A DNA stretch of 64,000 nucleotides from Blastococcus sp. DSM 46786 (GTDB lineage: Bacteria; Actinomycetota; Actinomycetes; Mycobacteriales; Geodermatophilaceae), in assembly GCF_900109665.1 (NCBI RefSeq), contig NZ_FOAO01000024.1, positions 1 through 64,000 on the forward strand, written 5' to 3'. The notes beneath the pieces were generated by a model. It was not told the origin of the DNA and made no database searches. It worked only from the letters and a program-made list of their open reading frames with translations. Positions 6,399 to 45,528 of this stretch are shown piece after piece (within the stretch, counting starts at the first letter, position 1; every line of letters begins with the position of its first letter). Both the position numbers and the translations under genes were made by a program.

Positions 6399-6413
6399 TA
6401 CTTCACCGCTAAG
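6399..6413 (-). promoter_or_regulatory. regulon operator, site 1 (carbamate kinase promoter)
   Basis: Minus-strand sequence CTTAGCGGTGAAGTA matches the shared 15-mer YTYAGCRSTGARRTA. On the plus strand the same bases carry the -35 hexamer TTCACC (6402-6407), followed 17 nt later by a TAGGGT -10 (6425-6430) and, after 7 nt, the GTG start. The mRNA is therefore probably leaderless, and a protein bound here would block the -35. Confidence 0.7.
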
Positions 6414-6437
6414 GGAAATGCGGCTAGGGTCCCCGGG

Positions 6438-7409
6438 GTGACGTCGAACCGCGTGGTGATCGCCCTCGGCGGCAACGCCATGACCGGCGCCGACGGCTCC
6501 GCGACGCCCGAGGCGCAGCGCGACGCGATCCGGGAGGCCGCCGGGCACGTCGCCGAGGTGGTCGCCGCCGGTGTCCAGGTGGTGCTCACCCACGGCAACG
6601 GCCCGCAGGTGGGCAACCTGCTGGTGAAGAACGAGCTCGCGGCGCACGAGGTGCCGCCGGTGCCGCTGGACTGGAACGTCGCGCAGACCCAGGCCACGAT
6701 CGGCTTCACCGTGGCCGACGAGCTCGACGCCGCTCTCGCCGCGCGCGGCCTGCCCCAGCGCACCGCCGCGCTGGTCACCCGGACGCTCGTCGACGGCGAC
6801 GACCCACACTTCGCCGAACCGTCCAAGCCGGTCGGCCGCTTCCTCCCCCGCGAGCGGGCGGAACGGTTCGTCTCGCTCGGCCAGACCTGGGAGGACCGCG
6901 GCGAGAAGGGCTGGCGGCGCGTCGTCGCCTCCCCGGAGCCGCTGTCCGTCGTCGACTCCCCCGCCATCCACGCCCTGGCCGCGGCGGGGTTCGTCGTCGT
7001 CTGCGCCGGCGGCGGCGGCATCCCCGTCGTCGACGACCACGTGGACGGGCACGCCCTGCGCGGCGTCGAGGCGGTCATCGACAAGGACCTGACCGCCGCG
7101 ATCCTCGCCCGCGACGTCGAGGCCGACACCCTCGTGATCGCCACCGACGTCCCGAACGTCATGGTCGATTTCGGGACGCCGGCGCAGCGCCCGCTGGGCC
7201 GGGTGACCGTCGCCGAGGTCCGCGAGCTCGCCGCCGCGGGCCAGTTCGCCCGCGGCTCGATGGGCCCCAAGGTCGAGGCCGCCCTACGTTTCGTGGAGGG
7301 CTCCACCCCCGGCCACGCCCCGCCCCCGCGCGCCGTCATCACCTCGCTCGACCACATCGCCGACGCCGTCCGCGGCGACGACGCCGGCACCGTCCTCACC
7401 TCCTCCTGA
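6438..7409 (+). CDS. arcC: carbamate kinase
   Basis: This 323-residue amino-acid-kinase-fold enzyme interconverts carbamoyl phosphate + ADP and carbamate + ATP in the cytoplasm. Seen are the N-terminal [44 protein letters not shown] and the C-terminal [15 protein letters not shown], all canonical for carbamate kinase, at normal length. It is the first gene of a two-gene operon with the ring-opening amidohydrolase (11-nt gap). The operon shares its operator with fdrA/DUF1116, whose E. coli relatives make carbamoyl phosphate in the allantoin/oxamate pathway. This suggests a catabolic, ATP-forming role rather than arginine deimination, since no arcA or arcB is seen. The GTG start lies 7 nt from the -10 box. 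Confidence 0.95.
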
Positions 7410-7420
7410 AGGGAATCCGC

Positions 7421-8524
7421 ATGCCCGCACCGATCGAGGTCCGCAAGGTCCCGCTGCACAACGTCAGCGACGCCTCCGAGCTCGCCAAGCTCATCGACGA
7501 CGGCGTGATGGAGGCCGACCGCGTCGTCGCCGTCATCGGCAAGACCGAGGGCAACGGCGGGATCAACGACTACACGCGGATCATCGCCGACCGCGCCTTC
7601 CGTGAGGTGCTCCTCGAGAAGGGCAGCCGCTCCAAGGAGGAGGTCGGTGACATCCCGATCGTGTGGTCCGGCGGCACCGACGGCGTCATCAGCCCACACG
7701 CGACGATCTTCGCCACGCTTCCCGAGGACGCCGTCGAGAAGACCGACGAGCCGCGGCTGACCGTGGGCTACGCGATGAGCGACGTCCTGCTGCCCGAGGA
7801 CATCGGCCGGGTGGCGATGGTCGAGAAGGTCGCCGAGGGCGTGAAGAAGGCGATGGCGGCCGCGGGCATCACCGACCCGGCCGACGTGCACTACGTGCAG
7901 ACCAAGACGCCGCTGCTGACGATCGACACCATTCGCGACGCCCACCAGCGCGGGGAGACGACGATCCTGGAGGAGCCGCACGGCTCGATGGACATCTCCA
8001 ACGGCACGACGGCGCTGGGCATCGCGGTGGCGCTCGGCGAGATCGAGATGCCGACGCAGGAGCAGGTCATGCGCGACCTGTCCCTGTACTCGTCGGTCGC
8101 GTCCTGCTCGTCCGGCGTGGAGCTGGACCGGGCGCAGATCGTCGTCGTCGGCAACGCCCGCGGGCACGGCGGCAGCTACCGCGTCGGCCACTCGGTGATG
8201 AAGGACGCGCTGGACCAGGACGGCATCTGGGCCGCGATCCGCGACGCCGGCCTGGAGCTGCCCGAGCGCCCGCACCACACCGACCTGGGCGACCGGCTGG
8301 TCAACGTCTTCCTCAAGTGCGAGGCCTCGCCCGACGGCAAGGTGCGCGGGCGGCGCAACGCCATGCTGGACGACTCCGACGTCTCCTGGCACCGCCAGAT
8401 CAAGGCGACCGTCGGCGGCGTCACCGCGTCGGTGACCGGCGATCCGGCGGTGTTCGTCTCGGTGGCCGCGGTGCACCAGGGCCCGTCCGGCGGCGGTCCG
8501 GTCGCCGCGATCGTCCGCGCGTGA
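7421..8524 (+). CDS. ring-opening amidohydrolase (barbiturase / cyanuric acid hydrolase family)
   Basis: This 367-residue enzyme hydrolyses a cyclic amide. The family includes cyanuric acid hydrolase (AtzD) and barbiturase, and its fold has three homologous domains, each contributing a Lys-Ser pair. The pairs can be read here as K41/S83 (VWSGGTDGV), K162/S230 (ASCSSGVE) and K299/S356 ([10 protein letters not shown]), so the active site looks complete. I cannot decide between cyanurate and barbiturate from motifs alone. The regulon context (uracil-type permease, molybdenum hydroxylase, FdrA system) favours barbiturate or a related pyrimidine dione, giving a ureido acid. An SD-like GAAGGGA precedes the ATG. 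Confidence 0.92.
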
Positions 8525-8620
8525 CGACAGCCGTTCCTCGAGGGGCATCGCAGCGAGGGACGAGCGAGGAGCGGACCGGGGCGCGGAGTCGCGCCATGAG
8601 CAAGGCGTAGCTCCCAGAAC

Positions 8621-8680: not shown

Positions 8681-8692
8681 CCCCGGGAACGG

Positions 8693-17663: not shown

Positions 17664-18535
17664 AGCGCGCCGGCGATGACGGGGATGAGATGACCACCAG
17701 CCAGCTCGACGAGGCCTTCGAGGCCTACCTCGCGGGACGCCCCGTCCCGGCCGAGGCAGCCTCGCTCATGGCGTTCGCCGACTCGGTCCGCGAGATGTCC
17801 TCCCGGCCCGCGCGGCCGAACGCGGCCCTCGCGGAGCTGCTGACCACCGGTCTCCTCACCGTCCCCGCCCCGGCGGAGACGGTCCCCACTGCCCGGGGAG
17901 CGGCGTCCACCGCGCTCCCGGGGCGACCGAGAAGGAGAAACCGCATGTTCACCGTCCTCGCCGCCGCCGTCGCCAAGTTCGCCTCCGCCGGGGCCGTGGC
18001 CCAGGCCTCCGCCGGCCTGGGTGCCGCCCTGGTCGGTGTCAGCACCGCCGGCGTCGCCGGCGTCCTGCCCGCCCCGGTCCAGGACGGCGTGGCCACCACC
18101 ATCGAGGCCGTGACGCCGTTCGACCTGCCCGACTCGACCGACGCCGAGGAGACCACCGAACCGACCTCCGAGGGGACCACCACGGAGGAGGCGCCGGAGG
18201 CCGGCACCGGCCCGGCCGACATCCCCGCCATCCCCGACTTCGGCACCTCGGTCAGCGAGGACGCCCGGGACGGCGGGGTGGACGGCGGCCAGATCAGCGA
18301 GGACGCCCGCAGCACCCACCAGCCCGAGCAGGCCGGTGAGCAGGCCGACCGGGCGACCACGGAGCGCCCGGCCACCTCGTCGGCGCCCGCGGCGCGGCCG
18401 ACGCAGGCCCCGGCCCCGGCCCCGGCCCCGGCTCCGGCTCCGGCTCCGGCCCCGGTCGAGCGCCCCGCTGCGGGCGGCGACGCCGCTCCGGCGGCCCCGG
18501 GTGGCCCGGCGCAGGCGGGCACCGGTCGCCCCTGA
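17660..18535 (+). CDS. probable ECF-partner (anti-sigma-like) protein with extracytoplasmic acidic/Pro-Ala tail
   Basis: The 291-residue protein has a short N-terminal domain (about 11-65), a hydrophobic Ala/Gly/Val segment (about 96-140) that may be a membrane span, an acidic Thr/Glu-rich stretch, and a Pro-Ala dipeptide repeat (about 251-266). By position and translational coupling it is the natural partner of the sigma factor, but no canonical anti-sigma zinc motif is seen. The start may be GTG 17660 or ATG 17690. A strong SD (GAAGGAGA, 17931-17938) stands 6 nt before an in-frame internal ATG at 17945, so a second, shorter product is possible. Confidence 0.7.
   Translation: MKRAGDDGDEMTTSQLDEAFEAYLAGRPVPAEAASLMAFADSVREMSSRPARPNAALAELLTTGLLTVPAPAETVPTARGAASTALPGRPRRRNRMFTVLAAAVAKFASAGAVAQASAGLGAALVGVSTAGVAGVLPAPVQDGVATTIEAVTPFDLPDSTDAEETTEPTSEGTTTEEAPEAGTGPADIPAIPDFGTSVSEDARDGGVDGGQISEDARSTHQPEQAGEQADRATTERPATSSAPAARPTQAPAPAPAPAPAPAPAPVERPAAGGDAAPAAPGGPAQAGTGRP
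18411..18459 (+). repeat. in-gene Pro-Ala hexanucleotide repeat
   Basis: Tandem CCGGCC/CCGGCT units encode alternating Pro-Ala residues near the C-terminus of the sigma-partner protein. Such repeats slip easily in replication and probably give a rigid extended spacer. Confidence 0.8.
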
Positions 18536-18548
18536 CCCGAGGCTCCCC

Positions 18549-18605
18549 CGAGTGCGACGAACGCGTGGCCATCAGCTGCTGATGGCCACGCGTTCGTCGC
18601 ATTCG
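18549..18605. repeat. 57-bp palindromic repeat, family 1, copy 2
   Basis: This copy has outer arms CGAGTGCGACGAA / TTCGTCGCATTCG with inner GGCCATCAGC / GCTGATGGCC. It is the most perfect of the three copies. It separates the sigma-partner gene (plus) from the converging DUF1116 gene (minus, ends at 18615), so it may serve both as a terminator. Confidence 0.9.
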
Positions 18606-18614
18606 CGGTGGGGC

Positions 18615-20033
18615 TCAGGCGGTGCGGGCCTCCTCGGCCAGCGCGGCCAGCGCCTGCTCGAAGCACGCCTGCGGCGGCTGCACGAGACCCGCGCCGACCT
18701 GCCCGGTGCCGGCCACCCGCCCGGCCATGCCGGTGTTGATCTGCGGCAGCCAACCGGTGCGGGCCACCTTCAGCACGTCGATGCCGGTCGGTGAGCCGCG
18801 GAAGCCCATGATCGGGATCGCCATCGCCGGGTTCTCGGCCAGGGTCAGCTGGTACATGCGCTCGGTCGTCGCCAGCGCGTCGGGCACGGTGCCGCCGACG
18901 AAGCGCACGATCGCCGGGGCCGCGGCCATGGCGAACCCGCCGATGCCGTAGGTCTCCATGATCGCGGAGTCACCGATGTCGGGGTTGGCGTCGTCCGGGC
19001 CGTAGTCACCGAGGAACAGGCCGACCGGGGTGTTGGCCGGGCCGGTGAACCAGCGGTCACCGGTGCCGGCGGTCTGGATGCCGAACTCGGTGCCGTTGCG
19101 CGACATCACGGTGAGCATCGTCGAGCCGGGGATGCCCCGGGCGGCGTCGAGCGCGAGCTTCGCCGTCGGCATGCCGAGGTTGAGGAAGAAGTGCTCGTTG
19201 CCGCCGATGAAGCGCAGCACGTCGGCGATGTCGGACGACGGGGCGCCGCTGGCCACGATGGACGGCGAGAGCTCGCGCAGCGCCATGAGCGAGCCGGCGC
19301 GGTTGCGGTTGTGTCCCTCGTCGCCCATCTGCAGCATCTGGGCCAGCACGGCCTTGACGTCGAGGGGGTCGTTGCCGGCGTCGATCGAGCCGCGCACCGC
19401 CTGCGACAGCACCGGACCGAGGACGTCGCGCATCCACCGCAGCCGGGTCTGCACCTCCTCGTTGAAGGCGCCCATGCGCAGCACCTTGCCGAGGCCCTCG
19501 TTCAGGTTGCAGAACGCCTGCCCGCCGGTGACCGGGTCCTCCAGGCACCACATCCACATCGACGGGCTGGTCACGCCCGCCATCGGCCCCACGGTGCGGT
19601 GGTGGTGGCAGGGCTCGAGGGTGACCGCTCCGGTGGAGAGGAGGATCTCGGCCTCCTCGACGTCGGCCGCCCACCCCTCGAACAGGCAGGCGCCCACCAG
19701 GGCGCCGCGCATCGGCCCGGAGGCGTTCTCCCACTCCAGCGGCGGGCCGGAGTGCAGCAGCGTGCGGTCGGTGAGGCCGATGACCTCGCGGGCGGGCCGG
19801 ACGTCGACGAGCACGGAACCGGCCGCCATGAGCCGCTCGACGGCGGTGCGGTTGGCCGATGCGCGGCGGGCGTCGAGCGCGAGCGCGGCGAGGTCGGCCG
19901 GATCGCCGAAGCCCGGCGGACGCCAGTCGACGTCGTGCACGTCGGCGCCCTGGGCGCGCAGCGCCTCGGAGAAGACGTCGACGCCGGCGGCGACGATCAC
20001 CGGCGGGCCGGAGAGCAGATTCCCGAGCGTCAT
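18615..20033 (-). CDS. DUF1116 protein (YlbE/AllG-like), oxamate carbamoyltransferase-type subunit
   Basis: This 472-residue protein belongs to DUF1116, the family of E. coli YlbE. The E. coli genes fdrA/ylbE/ylbF (allFGH) have been reported to encode oxamate carbamoyltransferase, which splits a carbamoylated acid with phosphate to carbamoyl phosphate. Seen blocks are GPPLEWENASGPMRGALVGA, EPCHHHRTVGPMAGV, MWCLEDP, DEGHNRNRAGS and IMGFRGSPTGIDV. ATG 20033 overlaps the fdrA stop by 4 bp (ATGA), so the two are translationally coupled. The DUF2877 (YlbF/AllH) partner is not found nearby. The substrate here is unknown; a ureido acid is likely from context. Confidence 0.88.
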   Translation of the reverse strand: MTLGNLLSGPPVIVAAGVDVFSEALRAQGADVHDVDWRPPGFGDPADLAALALDARRASANRTAVERLMAAGSVLVDVRPAREVIGLTDRTLLHSGPPLEWENASGPMRGALVGACLFEGWAADVEEAEILLSTGAVTLEPCHHHRTVGPMAGVTSPSMWMWCLEDPVTGGQAFCNLNEGLGKVLRMGAFNEEVQTRLRWMRDVLGPVLSQAVRGSIDAGNDPLDVKAVLAQMLQMGDEGHNRNRAGSLMALRELSPSIVASGAPSSDIADVLRFIGGNEHFFLNLGMPTAKLALDAARGIPGSTMLTVMSRNGTEFGIQTAGTGDRWFTGPANTPVGLFLGDYGPDDANPDIGDSAIMETYGIGGFAMAAAPAIVRFVGGTVPDALATTERMYQLTLAENPAMAIPIMGFRGSPTGIDVLKVARTGWLPQINTGMAGRVAGTGQVGAGLVQPPQACFEQALAALAEEARTA

Positions 20034-21535
20034 GCCGAAGCTCCCAGCAGGTCGAGGGCGTACCGCGTGGCCGCGGCGTTGGAGGAGAAGACGGCGCAGC
20101 CGGCGGCGGCGAGCGCGTCGGCCTGCCCGGACCAGCCCTGCGGATCGCCCTCGGTGCCGATCAGCGCGACGACGACCGGCAGCGATCGGCGCGCGCGGGC
20201 GGCGGTCAGCGCCGGCGCCAGCGCGGCGGCGGGATCGGGGTCCGCGCCGTACCCGAGGACGACGTCGAGCAGCAGGACGGCGGGCTCGTCGGAGGCGGCC
20301 AGCGCCTCGATCGCCTCCAGCCGCAGCGTCGGGTCGATCATCGGGTGCGCGCGGCCCACGGTCAGGGCGTCGTCGCCGAAGTCGATGACGAGGTGGCCGG
20401 AGGCGGACAGGTCCGTACCGAGATCGAGCTCCGGCCGCAGCGGGATGTTGGAGCGGATGCCGCCGAGCGCCGGGCCGGCGACGAGCATCGCCTCGTCGGC
20501 CAGCGTGCCGCCGGAGTAGAGGCCCTTGAGCACCGCACCGGGGACGGCGGCCTCGGCGGGCCCGGGGCGGGACGGCCACACCGGCACGTCGAGCCCCATG
20601 TCGGCGAGCAGCGCCTCGACGGCGGCGGTCAGGTCGGGGCTCTCGGGCGAGAGGACGGCGGAGCGCACCGGCACCGAGAGCTGCGCCGCGGCGTCGGTGA
20701 CCGCGGCGGCCACCGAGGGCGCGGGCGGCTTGGACACCAGCAGCACCCGCTCGGTGGCGGGGTCGGCGTCCAGGGCGGCCAGCGCGTCGAGGGTGGCGAG
20801 CCCGCCGACCTCCTCCTTGAGGTCCCGCCCGCCCACGCCGAGCACGTGCGAGACGCCGACGCCGGCCATGTCGAGCAGGCAGGAGACCTGCTGCGCGCCG
20901 GTGCCGCTGGCGGCGACCAGGCCCACCGGCCCGGGGCGGACGACGTTGGCGAAGCCCAGGGCGACACCCGAGACGATCGCCGTCCCGCAGTCGGGGCCCA
21001 TGACGAGCACGCCGGCGTTCCGGGCGGCGCGCTTGAGCGCGACCTCGTGCTCGACCGGGACACCGTCGGAGAACACCAGCACGCTGCGCCCGGCGGCGAT
21101 CGCGTCGGCGGCCTCGGCGACGGCGTGCTGGCCGGGCACGCTCACGATCGCCAGCGCCGGCGCCTCCGGGGAGAGCTCGTCGAGCCCCGCGCCGATGGTG
21201 CGGTGCGGGATCGCGGCGGCGGTGCCCGTCGAGCGCTCGCGCTCGACCAGGGCGGCGTCGACGTCGGCGAGCGCGTCGGCGAGCGTCTCGTCGTCGACGG
21301 CGCGGACGGCGATGAGGAGCTGCTCGGGGCTGGTCTGCTCCTCGGGCGCCAGGCCCATGCCGGCCGCGAGCTCGAGGTTCAGCGGCGTGGCCATGGCGAC
21401 GAGGACGGCGGAGACGCCCTCGCGGGCGCCGATCCGGCGGCTCACCTGCATCAGCTTCACCGAGTCGGCGTAGACGCCGGATCGCAGCTGCACCGAGACC
21501 GCGGCGTCTCCACCGGAGGGGGCTGAGGGGCTCAT
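20030..21535 (-). CDS. fdrA: FdrA family protein (AllF-like), carbamoyltransferase subunit
   Basis: The 501-residue protein has the succinyl-CoA-synthetase-like architecture of FdrA, with VLVMGPDCGTAIVSG, VGLVAASGTGAQQVSCLLD and VLGVGGRDLK in the first half and LYSGGTLADEAMLV, HPMIDPTLRLEAI and LLLDVVLGYGADPDP in the second. The E. coli homologue is a subunit of oxamate carbamoyltransferase. I chose ATG 21535 because a promoter ends 7 nt upstream (TTCACC, 17 nt, TACGGT) with the regulon operator over the -35; a GTG at 21544 lies inside the -10. It heads the operon with DUF1116 and is divergent from the permease. Confidence 0.9.
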   Translation of the reverse strand: MSPSAPSGGDAAVSVQLRSGVYADSVKLMQVSRRIGAREGVSAVLVAMATPLNLELAAGMGLAPEEQTSPEQLLIAVRAVDDETLADALADVDAALVERERSTGTAAAIPHRTIGAGLDELSPEAPALAIVSVPGQHAVAEAADAIAAGRSVLVFSDGVPVEHEVALKRAARNAGVLVMGPDCGTAIVSGVALGFANVVRPGPVGLVAASGTGAQQVSCLLDMAGVGVSHVLGVGGRDLKEEVGGLATLDALAALDADPATERVLLVSKPPAPSVAAAVTDAAAQLSVPVRSAVLSPESPDLTAAVEALLADMGLDVPVWPSRPGPAEAAVPGAVLKGLYSGGTLADEAMLVAGPALGGIRSNIPLRPELDLGTDLSASGHLVIDFGDDALTVGRAHPMIDPTLRLEAIEALAASDEPAVLLLDVVLGYGADPDPAAALAPALTAARARRSLPVVVALIGTEGDPQGWSGQADALAAAGCAVFSSNAAATRYALDLLGASA

Positions 21536-21559
21536 CCTCGGCACCGTACCGACAGATCT

Positions 21560-21574
21560 CTCAGCGGTGAAGTA
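21560..21574 (+). promoter_or_regulatory. regulon operator, site 2 (fdrA promoter)
   Basis: CTCAGCGGTGAAGTA matches YTYAGCRSTGARRTA. On the minus strand it contains the -35 TTCACC (21571-21566), 17 nt before the -10 TACGGT (21548-21543), itself 7 nt before the fdrA ATG. This is the same spacing as at site 1. Confidence 0.7.
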
Positions 21575-21597
21575 TCGGCATCTGCCCGCAATAACGA

Positions 21598-21612
21598 TTT
21601 AGCACTGAGGTA
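21598..21612 (+). promoter_or_regulatory. regulon operator, site 3 (permease promoter)
   Basis: TTTAGCACTGAGGTA matches the shared 15-mer. It lies 23 bp from site 2 in the divergent fdrA/permease region. The 50 bases from here align with those at site 4 (both continue to GGTGACA-AGTGACG 34 nt downstream), so sites 3 and 4 belong to similar promoters. Here the motif sits just upstream of the likely -35. Confidence 0.7.
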
Positions 21613-21718
21613 CTTCCGTCGGACGTGTGTGCGGTGACACAGTGACGCCTTCTGGTGCGCCGACACCCCCGTCGACCAGCACCGCATCGAGTTCGAAGTG
21701 CACGTCGAGGAGGCACTC

Positions 21719-23197
21719 ATGGCGTTCGGGTGGAAGCTCTACGGGGACGGCAAGACGCCCCCACTCGGGGAGGCCGTCGCCCCCGACGAACGCCTCTCCT
21801 GGCCGCGCACGGTCGGGATCGGCGCGCAGCACGTCGTCGCCATGTTCGGGGCGACCTTCGTCTTCCCGCTCATCATGGGCCTGGACGCCAACCTGGCGAT
21901 CATGATGAGCGGCATCGCGACGATCATCTTCCTGCTGATCGTCAAGGGGCAGGTCCCCAGCTACCTGGGCACCAGCGCCGCCTTCGTCGGCGGCGTGCTG
22001 GCGGTACGGGCGCAGACCGACAGCGACGCCGCCGTCCTGGGCGCGATCCTGGTGTCCGGCGTCGTGCTGGCCCTGGCCGGCCTCGCGATCCACTTCATGG
22101 GCGCCCGGGCGATCAATGCGGCGCTCCCGCCGGCGGTCACCGGCGCGGTCGTCCTGCTGATCGGCTTCAACCTCGCGCCGGTGGTGGCCAACGTGTACTG
22201 GCCGCAGGACCAGTGGGTCGGCCTGGCGACCATGACGTTCGTGATCGTCGCCTCGCTGCTGCTGCGCGGCTTCTGGTCGCGGATCTCGATCCTGCTCGGC
22301 CTGATCTTCGGCTACCTGCTCTCGGTCCTGCTCGACGCGGCCGCCGGTCCGATCACCTCGCCGGACGGCACGGGAGCGGTCGTCACCCGTGACCGGATCA
22401 ACTTCGACGCGGTCGCCCAGGCTGACTGGATCGGGCTGCCGGAGTTCACCGCCCCGAGCTTCTCGGTGAACTTCACGCTGCTGGTGCTGCCCGCGGTGAT
22501 CGCGCTGATCGCCGAGAACGCCGGGCACGTCAAGGCCGTCGCGGCGATGACCAAGCGCGACCTGGACCCGGTCATGGGCCGGGCGGTCTTCGCCGACGGC
22601 GTCGCCACCGTCGTCGCCACCTCGGTCGGCGGCTCCCCGACGACGACGTACGCGGAGAACATCGGGGTCATGGCCGCCACTCGCGTGTACTCGACGGCGG
22701 CCTACTACGTGGCCGCGATCGTCGCGATCCTGCTGGGCCTGGTGCCGAAGTTCGGCGCGCTGATCAACATCATCCCGGGCGGGGTGCTCGGCGGGATCAC
22801 CGTCGTCCTCTACGGGATGATCGGCCTCCTCGGCGCCAAGATCTGGAAGGAGAACCGGGTCGACTTCGCCAACCCGATCAACCTGGTGCCGCTGGCGGCC
22901 GGGATCATCATCGCCATCGGCAACGTGACCCTGAACGTCACGGACACGTTCCCGCTCAGCGGCATCGCCCTGGGCACGATCGTCGTCGTCGTCGGCTGGC
23001 ACCTGGCCCGGGCCGTTGCGCCCCCGGAGATGAAGGCCGCACTCCTCGAGGAGGACGGGTTCGTGCAGGGCACCGGGCCGGCCCTGGGGCACGCCGGTAG
23101 GCACGAGGTCCGGCCGGATCCGTCGTCGGTCGACCAGCTGGGCCGCCCCGGCGTGCTGGGTGGCAACACCCCCGGGACGGACACGCGCAAGCGCTGA
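21719..23197 (+). CDS. NCS2 family nucleobase permease, uracil type
   Basis: The 492-residue protein has about 14 membrane spans and is an NCS2 (UraA/UapA fold) proton symporter for nucleobases. The substrate-site glutamates of the uracil group are present: AENAGHVKAV (E in TM8) and TTTYAENIGV (E in TM10), where xanthine/urate carriers typically have Gln in the second motif. This favours uracil, thymine or a related pyrimidine. The ATG at 21719 has a strong SD (CGAGGAGG, 21706-21713). It is divergent from fdrA with regulon sites 2 and 3 between them, and it probably imports the substrate of the regulon. The last ~40 residues are a hydrophilic tail. Confidence 0.92.
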   Translation: MAFGWKLYGDGKTPPLGEAVAPDERLSWPRTVGIGAQHVVAMFGATFVFPLIMGLDANLAIMMSGIATIIFLLIVKGQVPSYLGTSAAFVGGVLAVRAQTDSDAAVLGAILVSGVVLALAGLAIHFMGARAINAALPPAVTGAVVLLIGFNLAPVVANVYWPQDQWVGLATMTFVIVASLLLRGFWSRISILLGLIFGYLLSVLLDAAAGPITSPDGTGAVVTRDRINFDAVAQADWIGLPEFTAPSFSVNFTLLVLPAVIALIAENAGHVKAVAAMTKRDLDPVMGRAVFADGVATVVATSVGGSPTTTYAENIGVMAATRVYSTAAYYVAAIVAILLGLVPKFGALINIIPGGVLGGITVVLYGMIGLLGAKIWKENRVDFANPINLVPLAAGIIIAIGNVTLNVTDTFPLSGIALGTIVVVVGWHLARAVAPPEMKAALLEEDGFVQGTGPALGHAGRHEVRPDPSSVDQLGRPGVLGGNTPGTDTRKR

Positions 23198-23322
23198 CCC
23201 GCTCTCCCCGCCGCCCCCGGCACCCGGACCTCACCGTCCGGGCGCCGGGGGCGGCGTGCGTCCGCGGGCCGGTGGGGCTCGGCGCCGTCGTCCCCGTCCG
23301 CTGACGGAACTCGCAACGAAGT

Positions 23323-23337
23323 TTTAGCGCTGAGGTA
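23323..23337 (+). promoter_or_regulatory. regulon operator, site 4 (molybdenum hydroxylase operon)
   Basis: TTTAGCGCTGAGGTA matches the shared 15-mer and is the closest to a true palindrome (TTAGCGCTGA). A CAGAGT -10-like box follows at 23363-23368. The first gene starts at 23405 with a GGAGGTGA SD. Confidence 0.7.
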
Positions 23338-23404
23338 CTTTCGCCCACCCTCCCGCCGGTGACAGAGTGACGTCTCGCAGCGAGCACGGAGGTGACCGGA
23401 GCCG

Positions 23405-24274
23405 GTGAAGCCCGCCCCCTTCCGCTACGCCGATCCCAGCAGCCTGGGAGAGGCCCTGGCGGTCCTGTCCGACGAGGGCGCCAAGGTGCTCGCGGGTGGC
23501 CAGTCGCTGCTGCCCCTGCTGTCCATGCGCCTGGCGGCGCCGGCCACGCTGGTCGACATCAACCGGATCCCCGGCCTGGACGCCGTCGAGGTGACCGCCG
23601 ACGGCGTGACGGTCGGGGCTCTGGTGCGGCACGACGCGCTGCTCCGCCACGAGGGAGCCTCCGCGGTGCAGCCGCTGCTGGCCCGGGCGACCGCGAACGT
23701 CGCCCACCCGGCGATCCGCAACCGCGGCACCACCGTGGGCTCGATCGCGCACGCCGACCCCTCGGGCGAGATGACCTCGGTGTTCGCGCTCACCGACGGC
23801 TCGGTCACCGTGGCGACGACGGCCGGCAGCGAGGTCGTCGGTTGGCGCGACTTCTTCGTCGGCCCGCTGGAGACCTCGATCCCCGCCGGCGCCGTCGTCA
23901 CCGCCGCCACCTTCCCGGCCCTGCCCCCGCGCTCGGGCACCGCGTTCGCCGAGGTCGCCCGCCGCAAGGGCGACTACGCGGTCTGCGGCGCCGGCGTCGT
24001 CGTCACCCTGTCCGAGGACCGGCGGGTCGAGCGGGTGCTGGCCTCCTACGTCTCGGTGGGGCTGACCCCCGAGGTGCACGACCTGACCGAGGCCGTCGCC
24101 GGCTCGCCGGTGGAGAAGGCCGACTGGGCCGCCGCCGGGGCGCTCGCGCGCACGCTGGTCGACCCGGACACCGACATCCACGCCAGCGCCGACTACCGGC
24201 GCCTGCTGGTGGGGGTGCTGACCGAGCGGACGCTGGCGGACGCCGCCGCAGAGGCCGCTGGGAGGGCCGCATGA
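23405..24274 (+). CDS. molybdenum hydroxylase FAD subunit (CoxM/XdhB-like)
   Basis: This 289-residue FAD-binding subunit passes electrons from the iron-sulphur subunit to an external acceptor. FAD-binding blocks are LAGGQSLLPLLSMRLAAPA (about 34-52), ATANVAHPAIRNRGTTVGSI (about 97-116) and HADPSGEM. GTG start with GGAGGTGA SD. It overlaps the 2Fe-2S subunit gene by ATGA. It is first in a four-gene operon (FAD, 2Fe-2S, Mo, CoxG). Confidence 0.93.
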   Translation: MKPAPFRYADPSSLGEALAVLSDEGAKVLAGGQSLLPLLSMRLAAPATLVDINRIPGLDAVEVTADGVTVGALVRHDALLRHEGASAVQPLLARATANVAHPAIRNRGTTVGSIAHADPSGEMTSVFALTDGSVTVATTAGSEVVGWRDFFVGPLETSIPAGAVVTAATFPALPPRSGTAFAEVARRKGDYAVCGAGVVVTLSEDRRVERVLASYVSVGLTPEVHDLTEAVAGSPVEKADWAAAGALARTLVDPDTDIHASADYRRLLVGVLTERTLADAAAEAAGRAA

Positions 24275-24789
24275 CCAGCATCGACACCGAACGGACCATC
24301 ACCGTCACCGTGAACGGTGTTCCACGTGAAGCCACGGTGCCGGTGCGCCGGCTGCTCTCCGACGCGCTGCGCCACGACCTGGGGCTGACCGGCACGCACG
24401 TCGGCTGCGAGCACGGCGTCTGCGGTGCCTGCACGGTGGTCGTGGACGGCGCCCCGGTGCGCTCGTGCCTGATGCTCGCCGTGCAGGTGGACGGCGCGGA
24501 GGTGCGCACCGTCGAGGGGCTGGCGCGCGAGGACCACCAGGGCGGGCAGGTGCTGCACCCGGTGCAGGAGGCCTTCCGCGAGTGCCACGCGCTGCAGTGC
24601 GGGTTCTGCACGCCGGGCTTCCTCATGACGATCGCGGCCGGGCTCGAGGCGCGGGACAACGCCGAGGAGCTCACCGAGGACGAGGTCGAGGACATGGTCG
24701 GCGGCAACCTCTGCCGGTGCACCGGCTACGCCAACATCAAGAAGGCCGTGCACCACGCGGCCGCCGCGATGAAGGACGCCGACGCATGA
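24271..24789 (+). CDS. molybdenum hydroxylase 2Fe-2S subunit (CoxS/XdhC-like)
   Basis: This 172-residue subunit carries two [2Fe-2S] clusters. The plant-type ferredoxin cluster is at CEHGVCGAC with a distal Cys in RSCLML. The all-helical cluster is at CGFCTPG and CRCTGY. It moves electrons from the molybdenum site to FAD. ATGA overlaps link it to both neighbours, consistent with stoichiometric assembly. Its N-terminus (about 20 residues before the ferredoxin fold) is slightly extended. Confidence 0.94.
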   Translation: MTSIDTERTITVTVNGVPREATVPVRRLLSDALRHDLGLTGTHVGCEHGVCGACTVVVDGAPVRSCLMLAVQVDGAEVRTVEGLAREDHQGGQVLHPVQEAFRECHALQCGFCTPGFLMTIAAGLEARDNAEELTEDEVEDMVGGNLCRCTGYANIKKAVHHAAAAMKDADA

Positions 24790-27209
24790 CCACCAAGCTC
24801 TTCGGCGAACCGGTCCGCCGGCGCGAGGACCAGCGGCTGATCACCGGTAAGGGCCGCTACCTCGACGACATCGGGCACACCGCCCTGGCCGCCGCCTTCG
24901 TGCGCTCCCCGCACGCGCACGCCCGGATCGTCTCGATCGACGTGGACGAGGCGCTGGACGTCGAGGGCCTCGTCGCGATCTACACCTACGAGGACCTCAC
25001 CGGCCCGATGGCCGAGCCGCTGCCGGTGCTCATCCCGCACCCGCAGCTGCACTCGCCGCGCACCGGGTTCCCGCTGGCCAACGGCGAGGTCAACCACGTC
25101 GGGGAGCCGGTGGTCATGGTGGTCGCCACCGACCGGTACGTCGCCGAGGACGTCTGCGACCGCATCGTCGTCACCTACGAGGAGCTCCCGGTCGTCGTCG
25201 GGGTGGACGCCGCACGCGCGGCGCAGCACGCGGTGCACGAGGAGATCCCGGACAACATCGCGGCCCGGCACCACCAGGAGACCGGCGACGTCGAGCCCGT
25301 GCTGGCCGCCTCCCCGCGGGCCCTGAGCTTTACCCAGTACATCGAGCGCAGCGCCTGCATGCCGATGGAGGGCAAGGGCGTGCACGCGAAGTGGGACGCC
25401 GACGACTCGTCGCTGCGGGTGTACACGAGCACCCAGGCGTCGACGTCGGTCCGCGCGGCGATCGCGGCGAAGCTGGACCTGAGCCTGGACAAGGTCGAGG
25501 TGATCGCGCCGGACGTCGGCGGCGGCTTCGGCGTGAAGATCGTGCACCCGTGGCCCGAGGAGCTGCTGGTGCCGATGGCGGCGATCGCGCTGGGCCGGGA
25601 GGTGAAGTGGGCCGAGGACCGGCGGGAGCACTTCATCGGCTCCGCGCACGAGCGCCAGCAGCGGCAGGAGATCACCGTCGGGTACGACGACGACGGCCGG
25701 ATCACCGCCCTCGACGTGCACATCTGGCACGACAACGGCGCCTACACGCCCTACGGGATCATCGTGCCGATCGTGACGGCGACCCAGCTGGTGGGGCCGT
25801 ACGCGATCCCGGTGTACCGCGTCATCGTCGAGTCGGTGTTCACCAACACCGTCATCGTGACCCCTTATCGCGGCGCCGGGCGGCCGCAGGGCTGCTACGC
25901 GATGGAGCGGACGATGGACCGCATCGCCGACGAGCTGGGCCTGGACCGGGCGCTGGTGCGCGAGCGGAACCTCATCCAGCCCGACCAGTTCCCCTACGAC
26001 CACCACCTGACGTTCCAGGACGGCCGGCCGGTCATCTACGACTCGGGCGACTACCCGGGGCTGCTGGTCAAGCTCAAGGACCTCGTGGGCTGGGACGAGG
26101 CCTCGCGGCTGCGGTCCGACGCCGAGGCGCGCGGCAAGCTGCTCGGCGTCGGGATGGCGCTGTACGTGGAGGGCACCGGACCCGGGCCGTACGAGGGCGG
26201 GCACGTGCAGGTGCTCGGCAGCGGCAAGGTGCTGGTCTCGACCGGGCTGACCTCGCAGGGGCAGGGGCACGAGACGGCGTTCGCCCAGATCGTCGCCAGC
26301 GAGCTCGGGGTGCCGATCGAGGACGTCGAGGTGACCACCGGCGACACCCGCCGCTTCGGGTACGCCGTCGGCACGTTCGCCTCGCGGGCCGCGGTGATGA
26401 GCGGCAACGCGATCGCGCTGGCCGCCCGCGGGGTGCGCGAGAAGGCCCTGCGGATCGCCGCCGACGTCCTGGAGGCCGAGCCTGCGGACCTCGAGATCGA
26501 CGAGGGCCTGGTGCAGGTGAAGGGCGTGCCGGGGACGTCGATCCCGCTGCGCACCGTGGCCGTGCTCTCGAACCCGCTGCGGTACGCCTTCGACGAGGCG
26601 GCGCGGCAGGCCACGCAGTTCGCCAAGCCCGGCGACGACGACAAGCCGCCGATCGCCGAGGGCGACGCGCCCGGGCTCGAGCACCGCGACTACTACTCGC
26701 CGATCCGGTCGACGTTCGCGTCGGGCGCGCACGCGGCGATCGTGGAGATCGACCCGGCCACGTGGGAGATCGACGTCGTCAAGTACGCGGTGGTGCACGA
26801 CTGCGGCAACGTGGTGAACCCGATGATCGTCGAGGGCCAGGTGCACGGCGGCGTCGCGCAGGGCGTGGGCGGGGCGCTGTACGAGCGGATGGCCTACGAC
26901 GCCGACGGGCAGCTGCAGAACGCCTCGTTCATGGACTTCCTGATGCCGTACGCCTCCGAGGTGCCCGACATCGACATCGACCACCAGCAGACCCCCTCGC
27001 CGCTGAACCCGCTGGGCATCAAGGGCGCCGGCGAGGCCGGCGTGATCCCGGGGACGGCGGCGCTGGCCTCGGCGATCGAGGACGCGGTGGGGCGGCGGAT
27101 CGCGTCGATGCCGATCTCGCCGACCGAGCTGTACGACCTGGTGCGTTCCCCTGATTCGGAGATGACCGCGACGGCCGGGCGCCGGGCGGGGACTGGAGTG
27201 ATGGCGTGA
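24786..27209 (+). CDS. molybdenum hydroxylase large subunit (aldehyde oxidase/xanthine dehydrogenase family)
   Basis: This 807-residue subunit binds the molybdopterin cytosine dinucleotide cofactor and hydroxylates its substrate with water-derived oxygen. DVGGGFGVK and the active-site loop PYRGAGRPQG (about 361-370) are seen, with the catalytic Glu in KGAGEAGVIPG (about 744-754). CO dehydrogenase form I has AYRCSFR in the loop, so this is not a classical CO dehydrogenase. Shared regulation with a uracil-type permease and a ring-opening amidohydrolase suggests hydroxylation of a heterocycle such as uracil. That is inference. ATGA overlap upstream, GTGA overlap downstream. Confidence 0.93.
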   Translation: MTTKLFGEPVRRREDQRLITGKGRYLDDIGHTALAAAFVRSPHAHARIVSIDVDEALDVEGLVAIYTYEDLTGPMAEPLPVLIPHPQLHSPRTGFPLANGEVNHVGEPVVMVVATDRYVAEDVCDRIVVTYEELPVVVGVDAARAAQHAVHEEIPDNIAARHHQETGDVEPVLAASPRALSFTQYIERSACMPMEGKGVHAKWDADDSSLRVYTSTQASTSVRAAIAAKLDLSLDKVEVIAPDVGGGFGVKIVHPWPEELLVPMAAIALGREVKWAEDRREHFIGSAHERQQRQEITVGYDDDGRITALDVHIWHDNGAYTPYGIIVPIVTATQLVGPYAIPVYRVIVESVFTNTVIVTPYRGAGRPQGCYAMERTMDRIADELGLDRALVRERNLIQPDQFPYDHHLTFQDGRPVIYDSGDYPGLLVKLKDLVGWDEASRLRSDAEARGKLLGVGMALYVEGTGPGPYEGGHVQVLGSGKVLVSTGLTSQGQGHETAFAQIVASELGVPIEDVEVTTGDTRRFGYAVGTFASRAAVMSGNAIALAARGVREKALRIAADVLEAEPADLEIDEGLVQVKGVPGTSIPLRTVAVLSNPLRYAFDEAARQATQFAKPGDDDKPPIAEGDAPGLEHRDYYSPIRSTFASGAHAAIVEIDPATWEIDVVKYAVVHDCGNVVNPMIVEGQVHGGVAQGVGGALYERMAYDADGQLQNASFMDFLMPYASEVPDIDIDHQQTPSPLNPLGIKGAGEAGVIPGTAALASAIEDAVGRRIASMPISPTELYDLVRSPDSEMTATAGRRAGTGVMA

Positions 27210-27889
27210 AGCTCGACGGCTCTGCGGTGCTGCACGGCGACCCCGAGAAGGTGTGGGCCGTGATCACCGACCCGACCGTGCTGGCGCGGACGATCCCCGG
27301 CTGCGAGTCGCTGGAGCAGGTCGGCGACGACGAGTACAAGATGAACGTCTCGGTCGGCGTCGGCGCGATCAAGGGGACCTACGCCGGCGAGGTGCGGCTG
27401 TCGGACCAGCAGCGGCCCTCCTCCTACGTGATGCACGCGTCGGGCGCCGGTGCGCCGGGCAATGCGCGGGCGACGGTGACGATCACCCTGGCCCCGTCCG
27501 AGGACGGCGCCACGAACCTCACCTACTCGGCGGACGCCGTCATCGGCGGGCCGGTCGCGGGTGTGGGCCAGCGGATGATCACCGGCGTGGCCAAGCGGAT
27601 GGCCGGCCAGTTCTTCAAGGCCATCGACGCCGAGCTGACCGGCGCCGCGGTGCCGGCGGCCGTCGCGCCGTCCGCGGCCGCGGTGAGCTCGACGGCGGAG
27701 GCGGAGGCGGCCGGCAAGCACGCCGCCCCCGCTCCCGAGGGCGCGCCGCAGGTGTTCACCGGCCGCGCGGGCGTTTCCGCGGGAACGCCCGGCGATGCGC
27801 AGACCCTGGCGCTCGGCGCCGTGGGCGGCGCTTTGCTGACGCTGATCGGCATCCTGGTCGGCTACCGCATGGGCCGCCGCCGCGACTGA
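27206..27889 (+). CDS. CoxG-like SRPBCC protein with C-terminal membrane anchor
   Basis: The 227-residue protein has a CoxG-type SRPBCC domain (about 1-150; GDPEKVWAVITDPTVLARTI, IPGCESLEQVGDDEY), a Pro/Ala-rich linker, and a C-terminal membrane span (LALGAVGGALLTLIGILVGY) followed by basic residues. CoxG in the CO dehydrogenase cluster anchors the enzyme to the membrane, and the same role is likely here. It is last in the molybdenum hydroxylase operon and overlaps the large-subunit gene by GTGA. Confidence 0.9.
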   Translation: MKLDGSAVLHGDPEKVWAVITDPTVLARTIPGCESLEQVGDDEYKMNVSVGVGAIKGTYAGEVRLSDQQRPSSYVMHASGAGAPGNARATVTITLAPSEDGATNLTYSADAVIGGPVAGVGQRMITGVAKRMAGQFFKAIDAELTGAAVPAAVAPSAAAVSSTAEAEAAGKHAAPAPEGAPQVFTGRAGVSAGTPGDAQTLALGAVGGALLTLIGILVGYRMGRRRD

Positions 27890-43612: not shown

Positions 43613-43646
43613 CGTCTCGCTGATGTCGCCACCTCCAGGTTGCTGA

Positions 43647-43669
43647 GGTTACCTCACTGTCCGGTAACC
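43647..43669. promoter_or_regulatory. inverted repeat, likely MarR operator
   Basis: GGTTACC and GGTAACC flank a 9-nt spacer in the 82-bp divergent region between the ABC exporter and the MarR gene. The -10-like TACCAT (43683-43688) of the MarR gene follows, 6 nt before its GTG. Confidence 0.65.
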
Positions 43670-43694
43670 GGAGCACCGCCGCTACCATTCCCCC

Positions 43695-44111
43695 GTGGCG
43701 GAGGACCGGACCGGCGAGCTGGGCGACCTGCTGATGCGGGTGGCCCGCACCCAGCGCCGCCGGTGGCGCGACGCGCTGGCCCCCTGGGACCTCTCCCCCC
43801 ACCAGGCCCGGGCCCTCCGGGTGGTCTGCGAGCGCGAGGGCGTCCGGCTCTCCGACCTGGCGGAGGCGCTGCACATCGCGCCCCGGTCGGCGACCGAGGT
43901 GGCCGACGGGCTGCAGGAGCGCGGGCTGGTCGAGCGGTCGCCCGACCCCGCCGACCGCCGGGCGGTGCTGCTGCGGCCGACCGACGAGGGGCGGCGGCTC
44001 CGGGGCGAGATCGGCCGCGCGCGGGCCGCCGACTCCGCCGAGCTCTTCGCCCGCCTGGGCCCCGAGGACCGCGCCGCGCTCGCCCGGATCCTGCGCACGC
44101 TCGCCGACTGA
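43695..44111 (+). CDS. MarR-family transcriptional regulator
   Basis: The 138-residue winged-helix protein has LSPHQARALRVVCEREGVRL, LADLAEALHIAPRSATEVAD-type recognition helix and the wing DPADRRAVLLRPTDEG. It probably represses itself and the divergent ABC exporter. The GTG is 6 nt after a -10-like box, so the mRNA is likely leaderless. Confidence 0.9.
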   Translation: MAEDRTGELGDLLMRVARTQRRRWRDALAPWDLSPHQARALRVVCEREGVRLSDLAEALHIAPRSATEVADGLQERGLVERSPDPADRRAVLLRPTDEGRRLRGEIGRARAADSAELFARLGPEDRAALARILRTLAD

Positions 44112-44221
44112 CCGCGCCGGGCGCCTGGCCTGCCGAGCTGTTGCCCCCGGGAGGCGCGCAGCCGCGGCGGCGGACGCCCCCGAGAATGGGGCTGACCCAC
44201 ACCGCCGTCCGGGGAGGCCCG

Positions 44222-44788
44222 ATGAGGGACCAGCTGGGGATCGACTGGCAGACGGCCGGCCTCGTCGTCCTGACCACCGTGTCCATGTACCTGGTGCTGA
44301 TCCTCTGCGTCCGGCTGGTCGGCCAGCGCAGCCTCGCCACCATGTCCAGCTTCGACCTCGGCTGCGCCATCGCGCTCGGCGCGGTGATCGGCCGGACCGC
44401 GCTGCTGCTCGACCCGACCCTGCTCACCGGGGTCGTCGCGATCGTCACCCTCTTCACCACGCAGATCGCGCTGGTGCGGGTCCGGCGCAGCCGCTGGGTG
44501 GACCGGCTGCTGAACCGCCCCCCGGTGCTGCTCATGGCCGGGGACGTGCCGCTGCGGGAGAACCTGCGGGCGGCCCACGTCGGCGAGGACGAGCTGCGGC
44601 AGAAGCTCCGGCTGGCCGGCATCCGCGACCTCGCCGAGGTGGGCTGCGTCGTGCTCGAGCGCACCGGGGCGGTGAGCGTGGTGCGCAGGTCCGAGCGGCT
44701 GGACCCGTGGCTGTTCTCCGACGTGCCCGGCGCCGAGCGCCTCCCCGCGACGGCGGAGGAGCCCGGCGCGCGGCGGGCGCCGGGCTGA
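44222..44788 (+). CDS. DUF421 (YetF-like) membrane protein
   Basis: The 188-residue protein has three N-terminal membrane spans (about 12-85), including VRLVGQRSLATMSSFDLGCA and the family-typical IALGAVIGR, and a C-terminal soluble domain (RPPVLLMAGDVPLRENLRAA, GIRDLAEVGCVVLERTGAVS). The function of the family is poorly known. It ends directly at the converging redoxin pseudogene. Confidence 0.88.
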   Translation: MRDQLGIDWQTAGLVVLTTVSMYLVLILCVRLVGQRSLATMSSFDLGCAIALGAVIGRTALLLDPTLLTGVVAIVTLFTTQIALVRVRRSRWVDRLLNRPPVLLMAGDVPLRENLRAAHVGEDELRQKLRLAGIRDLAEVGCVVLERTGAVSVVRRSERLDPWLFSDVPGAERLPATAEEPGARRAPG

Positions 44789-45448
44789 CTACTGGCGCTC
44801 CGGCGGGTGCTCGGCCCGCCAGCGGTCGAACGACTCCAGGAAGGAGGCGGCCATCCGGTTCTCGGTGCGGACCTCCTCGCGGTCCCGGTCGTCGCGCATC
44901 CGGTCGGCCAGCGCCATGGTGTTGAACTTGATGGCGCGGAAGTACGGGATGAAGGAGCCGGGCGTGAACGCCCGCTTCGACGGCCGGGGCTCGACGCCCT
45001 CCGGGGCCCACGGCCCGGGCTCGGGGAGCGGGGGCAGGCCCAGCCCCTCCAGCGCGGTGAGGAAGGGCTCGTCGTCCGTCCGGTCGGTGAAGTCGCGGGA
45101 AAGTTCCCGGAACACCTCCCGGCCGTCGGGGGCGACCGCGATGACGACCGGCCGGAAGATCGAGGCGTCCTCGTCCCAGGCGTCCAGCGGCTTCGCCAGC
45201 CGGGAGCCGTCGGGATCGCTCACCCAGCGGTAGGGCACGTGCCAGGTGCGGTCGAACGCGAGCTGCACCTCGGGCGGGTCGACCGAGGCGAGCACGACCT
45301 CGGTGCCGGCGGCGGCGAGACGGGGCAGAGACGGGGCCAGGCGGACCGCCTGGGCGCAGCAGTAGGGCTACCAGTCGCCCCGCAGGCCGATCAGGAGCAG
45401 GGCCGCGCGGTCGTCGGACCGCAGCGCGAGCAGGTCGGCGGTGTCCAT
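44789..45448 (-). pseudogene. redoxin (AhpC/TSA-like) gene interrupted by an in-frame TAG
   Basis: From ATG 45448 the frame reads MDTADLLALRSDDRAALLLI then GLRGDW-TAG-PYCCAQAV and continues without further stops to 44789 (219 codons plus stop). The TAG (45370-45368) falls where thioredoxin-fold redoxins have the first Cys of the W-C-P-Y-C motif. The downstream part has intact codon bias and recognisable fold (VVLASVDPPEVQLAFDRTW). Either this is a young nonsense mutation or a sequencing error. A truncated product could start at GTG 45295 but would lack the active site. Confidence 0.75.
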
Positions 45449-45513
45449 CGGCCCACGGTAGGCATGGGTCCGCGCGGGGCGCACCCGCGGCGGCGGGAGT
45501 CTTCCGATCCGGT

Positions 45514-45528
45514 TATCTCACCGCTAAG
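45514..45528 (-). promoter_or_regulatory. regulon operator, site 5 (hyuAB promoter)
   Basis: Minus-strand CTTAGCGGTGAGATA matches the shared 15-mer. On the plus strand it overlaps the -10 TAAGGT (45525-45530), with TTCCGA 17 nt upstream as -35, and ends 10 nt before the hyuA ATG. There is no SD, so the mRNA is probably leaderless. Confidence 0.65.

What the first reader, a model, noticed from the sequence alone, without database searches (positions are those of the whole stretch)
6399..45528. One operator motif ties five promoters into a dispersed heterocycle/ureide catabolic regulon
YTYAGCRSTGARRTA occurs at 6399-6413, 21560-21574, 21598-21612, 23323-23337 and 45514-45528. Nine of 15 positions are invariant and the rest two-fold. 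The five sites precede carbamate kinase/ring-opening amidohydrolase, fdrA/DUF1116, a uracil-type permease, a molybdenum hydroxylase operon and hyuAB. At sites 1 and 2 the -35, 17-nt spacer, -10 and 7-nt gap to the start are the same, with the motif on the -35. Sites 3 and 4 share about 50 aligned bases with the motif just upstream of the -35, so the same protein may repress some promoters and activate others. I noticed no sixth copy in the window and no regulator gene beside any site.
Basis: partly seen in the sequence, partly recalled or inferred. Interest (0 to 1): 0.82.

Follow-up and report, generated by a model that had tools for sequence, protein, structure and literature searches.

The report
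MarR regulon for pyrimidine breakdown
A short DNA signal found at five gene switches in a soil bacterium really does tie them into one system, most likely for breaking down pyrimidine bases through barbiturate, and the protein that probably reads the signal is encoded in the same stretch of DNA.

Summary
The 15-mer occurs five times in the window (0 in 100 shuffles) and six times in the 4.59-Mb genome (reversed control 0). It is the core of an 18-bp inverted repeat. Of 112 family genomes, 85 carry motif and MarR orthologue, 1 the MarR alone, 0 the motif alone, 26 neither. Twelve genomes keep barbiturase without the MarR; none has the motif. Outside the window's genus the operator precedes marR or nmrA-marR in 29 of 33 loci examined. 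A matrix of family sites finds tandem copies beside MarR homologues of other families. The target genes match the barbiturase cluster of Rhodococcus erythropolis, so the regulon is probably oxidative pyrimidine catabolism. In three genomes targets and marR form one cluster in which allK, allF and allG are missing and an operator-preceded amidase is present, suggesting that AllFG/AllK stands in for ureidomalonase. Binding, repression, ligand and enzyme reactions are inferred.

The parts
6399..6416 (-). operator 1, over the -35 of allK-barbiturase; TTCACC 6402-6407, -10 TAGGGT 6425-6430, start GTG 6438
   Evidence: exact site upstream of AllK in 23 of 23 cluster loci and 56 of 72 named barbiturase loci
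6438..7409 (+). allK, carbamate kinase
   Evidence: below the arcC equivalog cut-off, above the PRK12352 subfamily cut-off
7421..8524 (+). barbiturase (AtzD/TrzD family)
   Evidence: 646.6 bits to solved barbiturase 5hwe against 342.1 to the best cyanuric acid hydrolase; NCBIfam places it above the cut-off of a cyanuric acid amidohydrolase model
18615..20030 (-). allG (DUF1116), oxamate carbamoyltransferase-like subunit
   Evidence: PF06545, E 1.6e-91 for the longer ORF 18615-20579
20030..21535 (-). allF (FdrA), likely leaderless ATG at 21535 (the ORF tool starts at GTG 21544)
21557..21574 (+). operator 2, over the -35 of allF-allG
   Evidence: exact site upstream of AllF in 24 of 25 cluster loci and 35 of 43 named loci
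21595..21612 (+). operator 3, upstream of the presumed permease -35
   Evidence: exact site upstream of the permease in 24 of 25 cluster loci (the 220-nt stretch scanned also contains operator 2)
21719..23197 (+). NCS2 uracil/RutG-like permease (likely ATG at 21719)
23320..23337 (+). operator 4, upstream of the presumed Mo-hydroxylase -35
   Evidence: exact within 140 bp upstream of MoFAD in 13 of 22 cluster loci and further upstream in 2 more; the other 7 have MoFAD 0-51 bp after the permease
23405..24274 (+). molybdenum hydroxylase FAD subunit
24271..24789 (+). molybdenum hydroxylase 2Fe-2S subunit
   Evidence: Fer2_2 and Fer2
24789..27209 (+). molybdenum hydroxylase Mo subunit (profile starts at residue 109 of the ORF 24465-27209); PYRGAGR stretch
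27206..27889 (+). CoxG-like accessory protein
45514..45531 (+). operator 5, its end forming a putative -10 TAAGGT of leaderless hyuA
   Evidence: exact in L084 and with one mismatch in L066, L067, L068
45539..47641 (+). hyuA, hydantoinase/oxoprolinase A
47638..49512 (+). hyuB, hydantoinase/oxoprolinase B
54093..54593 (-). MarR-family regulator, PecS-like; proposed reader of the operator

Best explanation
The motif is the operator of a PecS-like MarR-family dimer encoded at 54093-54593 (-). The dimer binds an 18-bp inverted repeat (9-bp half-site about TAYCTYAGC). It most likely represses the allK-barbiturase, allFG and hyuAB operons by covering their -35 or -10, and also controls the pyrimidine permease, the molybdenum hydroxylase and a distant CoA-transferase gene. 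A nucleobase or pathway intermediate such as uracil, thymine or barbiturate probably releases it. The target genes make up an oxidative pyrimidine pathway: uptake, oxidation to barbiturate, ring opening to ureidomalonate, then removal of the carbamoyl group by AllF/AllG and carbamate kinase. Shown by computation: the operator, its conservation, its co-occurrence with this MarR, its place before marR in relatives, and the gene content. Inferred: direct binding, repression, ligand and enzyme reactions.
For: Motif and MarR orthologue co-occur in 85 of 112 genomes; MarR alone in 1 (G033, 76% complete), motif alone in 0, neither in 26; AllG against motif is looser (80/5/8/19). Of 96 barbiturase genomes, 84 of 84 with the MarR have the motif and 0 of 12 without it do. 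In 43 MarR-centred family loci a site (at most 1 mismatch) lies directly upstream of marR in 7 and upstream of an nmrA-marR pair in 22; outside the window's genus that is 29 of 33. In G326, another family, the stringent palindrome hits once, 28 bp before the called start of a MarR homologue of about 59% identity. A matrix of family sites hits 31 times within 200 bp upstream of MarR homologues, in 12 of 19 loci, and 20 times in the other 287 kb of those loci. Aligned homologues reading TQR in the recognition helix have these palindromes upstream or, for L241 and L242, just 3'; four reading TNR (L254, L256, L258, L259) have no hit there. In three genomes marR sits inside the target cluster.
Against: No binding or expression data. 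In the 10 genomes of the window's own genus that have it, marR has no site within 1.4 kb upstream, and 4 further family loci lack one (window 54560-56000). Independence is limited: most motif-free genomes fall into a few clades. L241, L242 and L249 have the palindromes just 3' of the homologue, not upstream. Of 35 order-wide rows of the stringent palindrome 8 are at a MarR, and 12 other-family genomes have single or paired hits that I did not explain. Two Blastococcus loci (L167, L213) lack an AllF site within 1 mismatch and one Geodermatophilus locus (L188) lacks an AllK site.
Confidence: 0.86

Rival explanations
1. A different, unidentified DNA-binding protein reads the motif, and the MarR co-occurs only because it is linked to the pathway cluster.
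For: In the window's genus no site was found before marR in 10 of 10 loci, and marR is about 9 to 48 kb from its presumed targets in the window.
Against: In G024 marR is on another contig than the cluster yet both are kept. AllG or barbiturase without the MarR never comes with the motif. Sites precede marR or nmrA-marR in 29 of 33 family loci outside the genus and MarR homologues in other families.
Confidence: 0.07
2. The motif is a core-promoter element (a -35 variant), not an operator.
For: At sites 1 and 2 TTCACC inside the motif is at -35 spacing from a -10.
Against: It occurs in three registers: over -35, over -10, and upstream of -35. It is an inverted repeat and is absent from genomes that keep the same genes without the MarR (L271, L277, L278).
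Confidence: 0.03
3. The MarR is a dual regulator: repressor at allK, allF, hyuA and nmrA/marR, activator at the permease, Mo-hydroxylase and CoA-transferase promoters.
For: At these latter promoters the operator abuts the presumed -35 from upstream, with a conserved stretch downstream at the permease and Mo-hydroxylase genes.
Against: A dimer can also repress from that place; no expression data exist.
Confidence: 0.25
4. The regulon serves purine/allantoin (oxalurate) or hydantoin catabolism, not pyrimidines: AllF/AllG/AllK act on oxalurate as in E. coli.
For: AllFGH makes oxamate and carbamoyl phosphate from oxalurate in E. coli (PMC11326118, passages); HyuAB is a hydantoinase-type pair; PecS relatives bind urate (PMC6391409, passages).
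Against: The AtzD-family enzyme is closest to barbiturase. A permease, Mo enzyme, barbiturase and HyuA genes cluster in R. erythropolis. AllF/G/K is replaced by an amidase while barbiturase stays.
Confidence: 0.12

Closest known systems
PecS/PecM and urate-responsive MarR regulators (PecS, MftR, HucR)
   Same: MarR family; 18-bp inverted repeat with 9-bp half-sites, outer bases alike (V. vulnificus TATCTTTAT, PMC6391409 passages, against TAYCTYAGC here); several homologues in other families sit opposite an EamA/PecM-like gene with 2-3 tandem operators
   Different: Here marR is not opposite a PecM gene but follows an nmrA or a MEDS-HATPase gene, and its operator lies at catabolic operons; urate binding was not tested
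Oxidative pyrimidine (barbiturase) cluster of Rhodococcus erythropolis
   Same: Permease, barbiturase, Mo-hydroxylase FAD and Mo subunits, CoxG and HyuA relatives in one stretch (L224)
   Different: There two PucR regulators and an amidase sit in the cluster; here a MarR operator, and AllF/AllG/AllK instead of the amidase; the motif was not found within one mismatch in L217, L221, L222 or L224
E. coli AllFGHK oxamate carbamoyltransferase and carbamate kinase
   Same: AllF and AllG families and a carbamate kinase; possibly phosphorolytic carbamoyl transfer
   Different: Sits with barbiturase; no AllH found beside AllG; one AllH-family hit lies on another contig with no site within one mismatch in the 17 kb around it

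Membership tests
MarR family | winged-helix MarR domain | tested here: met
   Orthologue in L069: PF12802 E 3.8e-15, PF01047 E 1.7e-10; the window protein (88% identical over 163 residues) matches 59 PDB sequences, most of them named MarR-type regulators
PecS subgroup | 18-bp inverted-repeat operator in own promoter | tested here: inconclusive
   A site lies upstream of marR or nmrA-marR in 29 of 43 family loci but in 0 of 10 of the window's genus
PecS subgroup | divergent from a PecM/EamA transporter | tested here: not met
   The window gene follows a MEDS-HATPase gene on the same strand; in other families five of six printed loci have a PecM-like opposite gene, EamA confirmed by Pfam for one. 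Hence 'PecS-like', not PecS
PecS subgroup | urate or xanthine as ligand | not testable with these tools
   No binding assay; the published ligand residues were not read, only recalled
Barbiturase (AtzD family) | closer to barbiturase than to cyanuric acid hydrolase | tested here: met
   646.6 against 342.1 bits. By my own count on the alignments the place of CAH Arg188 is Asn in both 5hwe and the window protein; PMC4051656 (passage) gives glutamine for the barbiturase subgroup
Oxamate carbamoyltransferase AllFGH | all three subunits AllF, AllG, AllH | tested here: inconclusive
   AllF and AllG present; ORF 17725-18753 next to AllG has no Pfam match; one AllH-family hit on contig C27
Aerobic CO dehydrogenase | form I CoxL active-site loop AYxCSFR (recalled) | tested here: not met
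   Not found by pattern search; PYRGAGR found instead, although NCBIfam NF040766 scores 1470 against a 950 cut-off

The most novel reading that the evidence does not exclude
A MarR-controlled pyrimidine pathway in which AllF/AllG is a carbamoyltransferase for ureidomalonate (the analogue of oxalurate that is one CH2 longer): it splits it with phosphate to malonamate and carbamoyl phosphate, from which AllK makes ATP, so that hydrolytic ureidomalonase is replaced by an energy-saving step. The Mo enzyme that annotation calls CO dehydrogenase would be the uracil/thymine dehydrogenase.
Probability: 0.45. Interest if true: 0.78.

Novelty: new variant of a known kind. Interest (0 to 1): 0.64.

Why it matters
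It gives oxidative pyrimidine catabolism in these actinobacteria a named, testable regulator and operator, shows a PecS-like MarR operator placed at a catabolic regulon, and supplies candidate genes for steps that can now be tested directly: the uracil/thymine dehydrogenase, and a possible ATP-yielding alternative to ureidomalonase that is swapped against an amidase under the same operator. In the search listings that I saw, no paper joins barbiturase with FdrA/AllF (two searches listed 20 of 25 and 12 of 23 papers) and none holds both 'barbiturase' and 'MarR' (0 papers). Only open-licence papers are held.

Tried and rejected
A core-promoter reading was set aside because the motif sits in three registers and is missing where the MarR is missing. 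A WYL regulator near a site in G024 (L074) was set aside because the site lies 3' of it and upstream of the next gene. An AllH next to AllG was looked for and not found; a hit lies elsewhere. The 1-mismatch hit on C11 (L009) looks by eye to be inside a coding region and was treated as chance. The PDB entries closest to the MarR (8ylf, 8ylh) are named in no paper of the library. No structure was predicted.

The sets were copied by hand from the printed tables. Three genomes not listed (G074, G088, G094) and four (G090, G093, G096, G099) were taken as without a match because they are not among the listed matches. G003, G071 and G108, with only 44-49% matches, were counted as lacking the orthologue. 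One search was given 19 of the 20 loci (the in-family orthologue locus L255 was left out); 17 of the 19 are from other families, L258 and L259 are in-family paralogues. L249 was not in the protein alignment. The output was cut in the middle by one wrongly placed start; counts come. The family-wide site list was truncated after G058.
Full report
OBSERVATION. The pattern YTYAGCRSTGARRTA matches the window five times at exactly the stated places, with none in 100 shuffles. In the whole 4.59-Mb genome it matches six times, with none for the reversed pattern. The sixth copy is on contig C24, between a MatC-type dicarboxylate carrier gene and a class III CoA-transferase gene and in front of the latter. 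With up to two mismatches there are 72 hits against 24 for the control (palindromic places count twice), so a good part of the weak matches is chance.

CONSERVATION. In 112 genomes of the family, 85 have at least one exact copy; the reversed control hits 3 genomes. In 25 cluster loci (the window plus 24 stretches from relatives) the exact site lies upstream of allK in 23 of 23, of allF in 24 of 25 and of the permease in 24 of 25. Within 140 bp upstream of the Mo FAD gene it is found in 13 of 22; two of the nine misses (L143, L083) have an exact site a little further upstream, after the permease gene, and in the other seven the FAD gene starts 0-51 bp after the permease. The scanned stretches upstream of barbiturase (24 loci), allG (25), the Mo subunit (4), CoxG (4) and the neighbours SpoIIE (17), MCP (12) and TctC (8) have none, nor does the reversed pattern anywhere. 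Because allF and the permease are divergent, their two stretches overlap. In 80 named barbiturase loci, 72 have enough sequence upstream of an allK: 56 have the exact site, 6 more have it with one mismatch, and 10 have none (L184, L188 and eight more distant loci). For allF it is 35 of 43 exact, 4 more with one mismatch, 4 with none (L167, L180, L184, L213).

PROMOTERS. At allK and allF the motif carries TTCACC as -35, 17 nt before TAGGGT or TACGGT, 7 nt before the start codon in the window, so these look leaderless. At hyuA, nmrA and marR the end of the operator forms a putative -10 just before the start. At the permease, Mo-hydroxylase and CoA-transferase genes it abuts the presumed -35 from upstream. 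Promoter elements are read by eye.

THE REGULATOR. In three genomes (L066, L068, L069) the 18-bp operator ends 5-6 bp before a MarR-family gene (Pfam was run on the L069 protein). The window holds its orthologue at 54093-54593 on the minus strand. Orthologues (79% identity or more; the next class is 52% or less) occur in 86 of 112 genomes. Motif and orthologue together: 85; motif alone: 0; orthologue alone: 1 (G033, 76% complete); neither: 26. For AllG the same table is 80, 5, 8, 19. The eight AllG genomes without the MarR all lack the motif. For barbiturase, 84 of 84 genomes with the MarR and 0 of 12 without it have the motif. In 43 fetched family loci centred on the orthologue, a site with at most one mismatch lies directly before marR in 7 and before an nmrA-marR pair in 22. 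The 14 without are the 10 loci of the window's genus and 4 others (L116, L120, L233, L235). The number of independent events is small, so the Fisher values should not be taken at face value.

OTHER FAMILIES. In 397 genomes of the order (the family's own among them), 104 have a homologue at E 1e-40 or better. The stringent palindrome hits 31 of 397 genomes in 35 rows. Eight rows are at a marR gene, directly or one nmrA-length upstream; one of them (G326) is outside the family. Twelve other-family genomes have hits that I did not follow; one of these, G211, has its stringent hit on another contig than its MarR homologue. A matrix built from family sites only was run on 19 homologue loci, 17 of them from other families. 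It hit 31 times within 200 bp upstream of the homologue, in 12 of 19 loci, and 20 times in the other 287 kb; three loci (L241, L242, L249) have a pair just 3' of the gene instead. In five of the six loci whose gene calls I printed the opposite gene looks like a PecM-type transporter; Pfam confirmed EamA for the one tested (L253). Homologues whose recognition helix reads TQR have these palindromes (11 upstream, L241 and L242 just 3'); L257, reading AQR, has a weaker one; four reading TNR (L254, L256, L258, L259) have none there and show other palindromes by eye. The nearest characterised group that I can name is PecS, whose Vibrio operator is TATCTTTATATTAAGATA and which represses and is released by urate or xanthine (PMC6391409, passages).

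THE PATHWAY. The AtzD-family enzyme matches the solved barbiturase 5hwe at 646.6 bits, against 342.1 for the best cyanuric acid hydrolase, although NCBIfam puts it over the cut-off of a cyanuric acid hydrolase model. In Rhodococcus erythropolis NBRC 15567 one 21-kb stretch holds a permease, barbiturase, an amidase, a second permease, Mo FAD and Mo subunits, CoxG and the start of HyuA, with two PucR regulators. Aeromicrobium and Mumia have HyuA, HyuB, an NmrA-like gene, AllK and barbiturase together. The genes joined by the motif are thus joined by position in organisms where I did not find it upstream of them.

THE SWAP. They hold one cluster of barbiturase, permease, Mo genes, HyuA, HyuB, NmrA, MarR and amidase, with operators (exact or one mismatch) before barbiturase, permease, hyuA and amidase. 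What looks like the old allK promoter, with operator and TAGGGT, is still there in front of barbiturase. The amidase is 41% identical to, and in the same NCBIfam subfamily (NF005686) as, the amidase beside the Rhodococcus barbiturase. Among 80 named barbiturase loci, AllK without amidase in the fetched stretch occurs in 72, amidase without AllK in 4, both in 1 (L223) and neither in 3. Of those three, two are the Modestobacter loci whose amidase is beyond the fetched stretch and one is Trujillonella. G108 lacks AllK but keeps AllF/AllG, which is against a strict unit. My reading is that AllF/AllG/AllK and the amidase do the same job, removing the carbamoyl group of ureidomalonate, which differs from oxalurate, the substrate of E. 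coli AllFGH (PMC11326118, passages), by one CH2. That chemistry is an inference; E. coli needs AllH, and here only one AllH-family hit was found, on another contig. That barbiturase makes ureidomalonate and that uracil is oxidised to barbiturate is established knowledge that I recalled; the papers on it were seen only as references.

VERDICT. The finding is real, and stronger than claimed. Regulator identity is well supported, repression likely, ligand unknown, dual action open. The kind of system is known (a MarR regulon); its operator-target set and the AllFGK-for-amidase swap appear new in the listings that I could search (some searches showed only part of their hits).

Noticed in passing
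window 24789-27209: The Mo subunit scores far above the cut-off of an NCBIfam CO dehydrogenase model (NF040766) but sits in the pyrimidine regulon; annotation as CO dehydrogenase is probably misleading.
   Followed up: partly
window 21613-21660 and 23338-23375: Downstream of operators 3 and 4 a stretch like GTGACAnAGTGACG is kept in many relatives; perhaps an extended -10, perhaps a second binding site.
   Followed up: partly
L007/L032 (G000 contig C8) and L070: A perfect palindrome TTCCTCAGCGCTGAGGAA lies upstream of a HAMP/MCP chemotaxis receptor gene on C8; in G020 (L070) a site lies upstream of a gene of similar size that was not identified.
   Followed up: partly
L010/L033 (G000 contig C19, about 60228-60245): A one-mismatch palindrome lies just upstream of a carboxymuconolactone decarboxylase-family gene next to a LplA/LipB-type gene.
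   Followed up: no
L077, with like-looking sites in L078, L081 and L074: An operator lies upstream of a Bmp/PnrA-type substrate-binding protein gene (Pfam only for L077; sites), suggesting nucleoside uptake may join the regulon.
   Followed up: partly
window 54631-55722: A MEDS plus HATPase gene stands directly upstream of marR here and in L069; elsewhere an nmrA gene takes that place.
   Followed up: partly
window 45368-45448 (-): A reading frame starting MDTADLLALR near hyuA meets a TAG after 26 codons (by eye); possibly a decayed gene.
   Followed up: no
L152 (SPQJ01000043.1): A record titled 'UNVERIFIED_ORG: Bacillus sp. AZ43' carries a barbiturase 96% identical to the window's and is very probably a Geodermatophilaceae.
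   Followed up: no
L031:7898-8620 (-): A GntR/FCD regulator gene stands opposite the MatC carrier next to the sixth operator, so that operon may have a second regulator.
   Followed up: no
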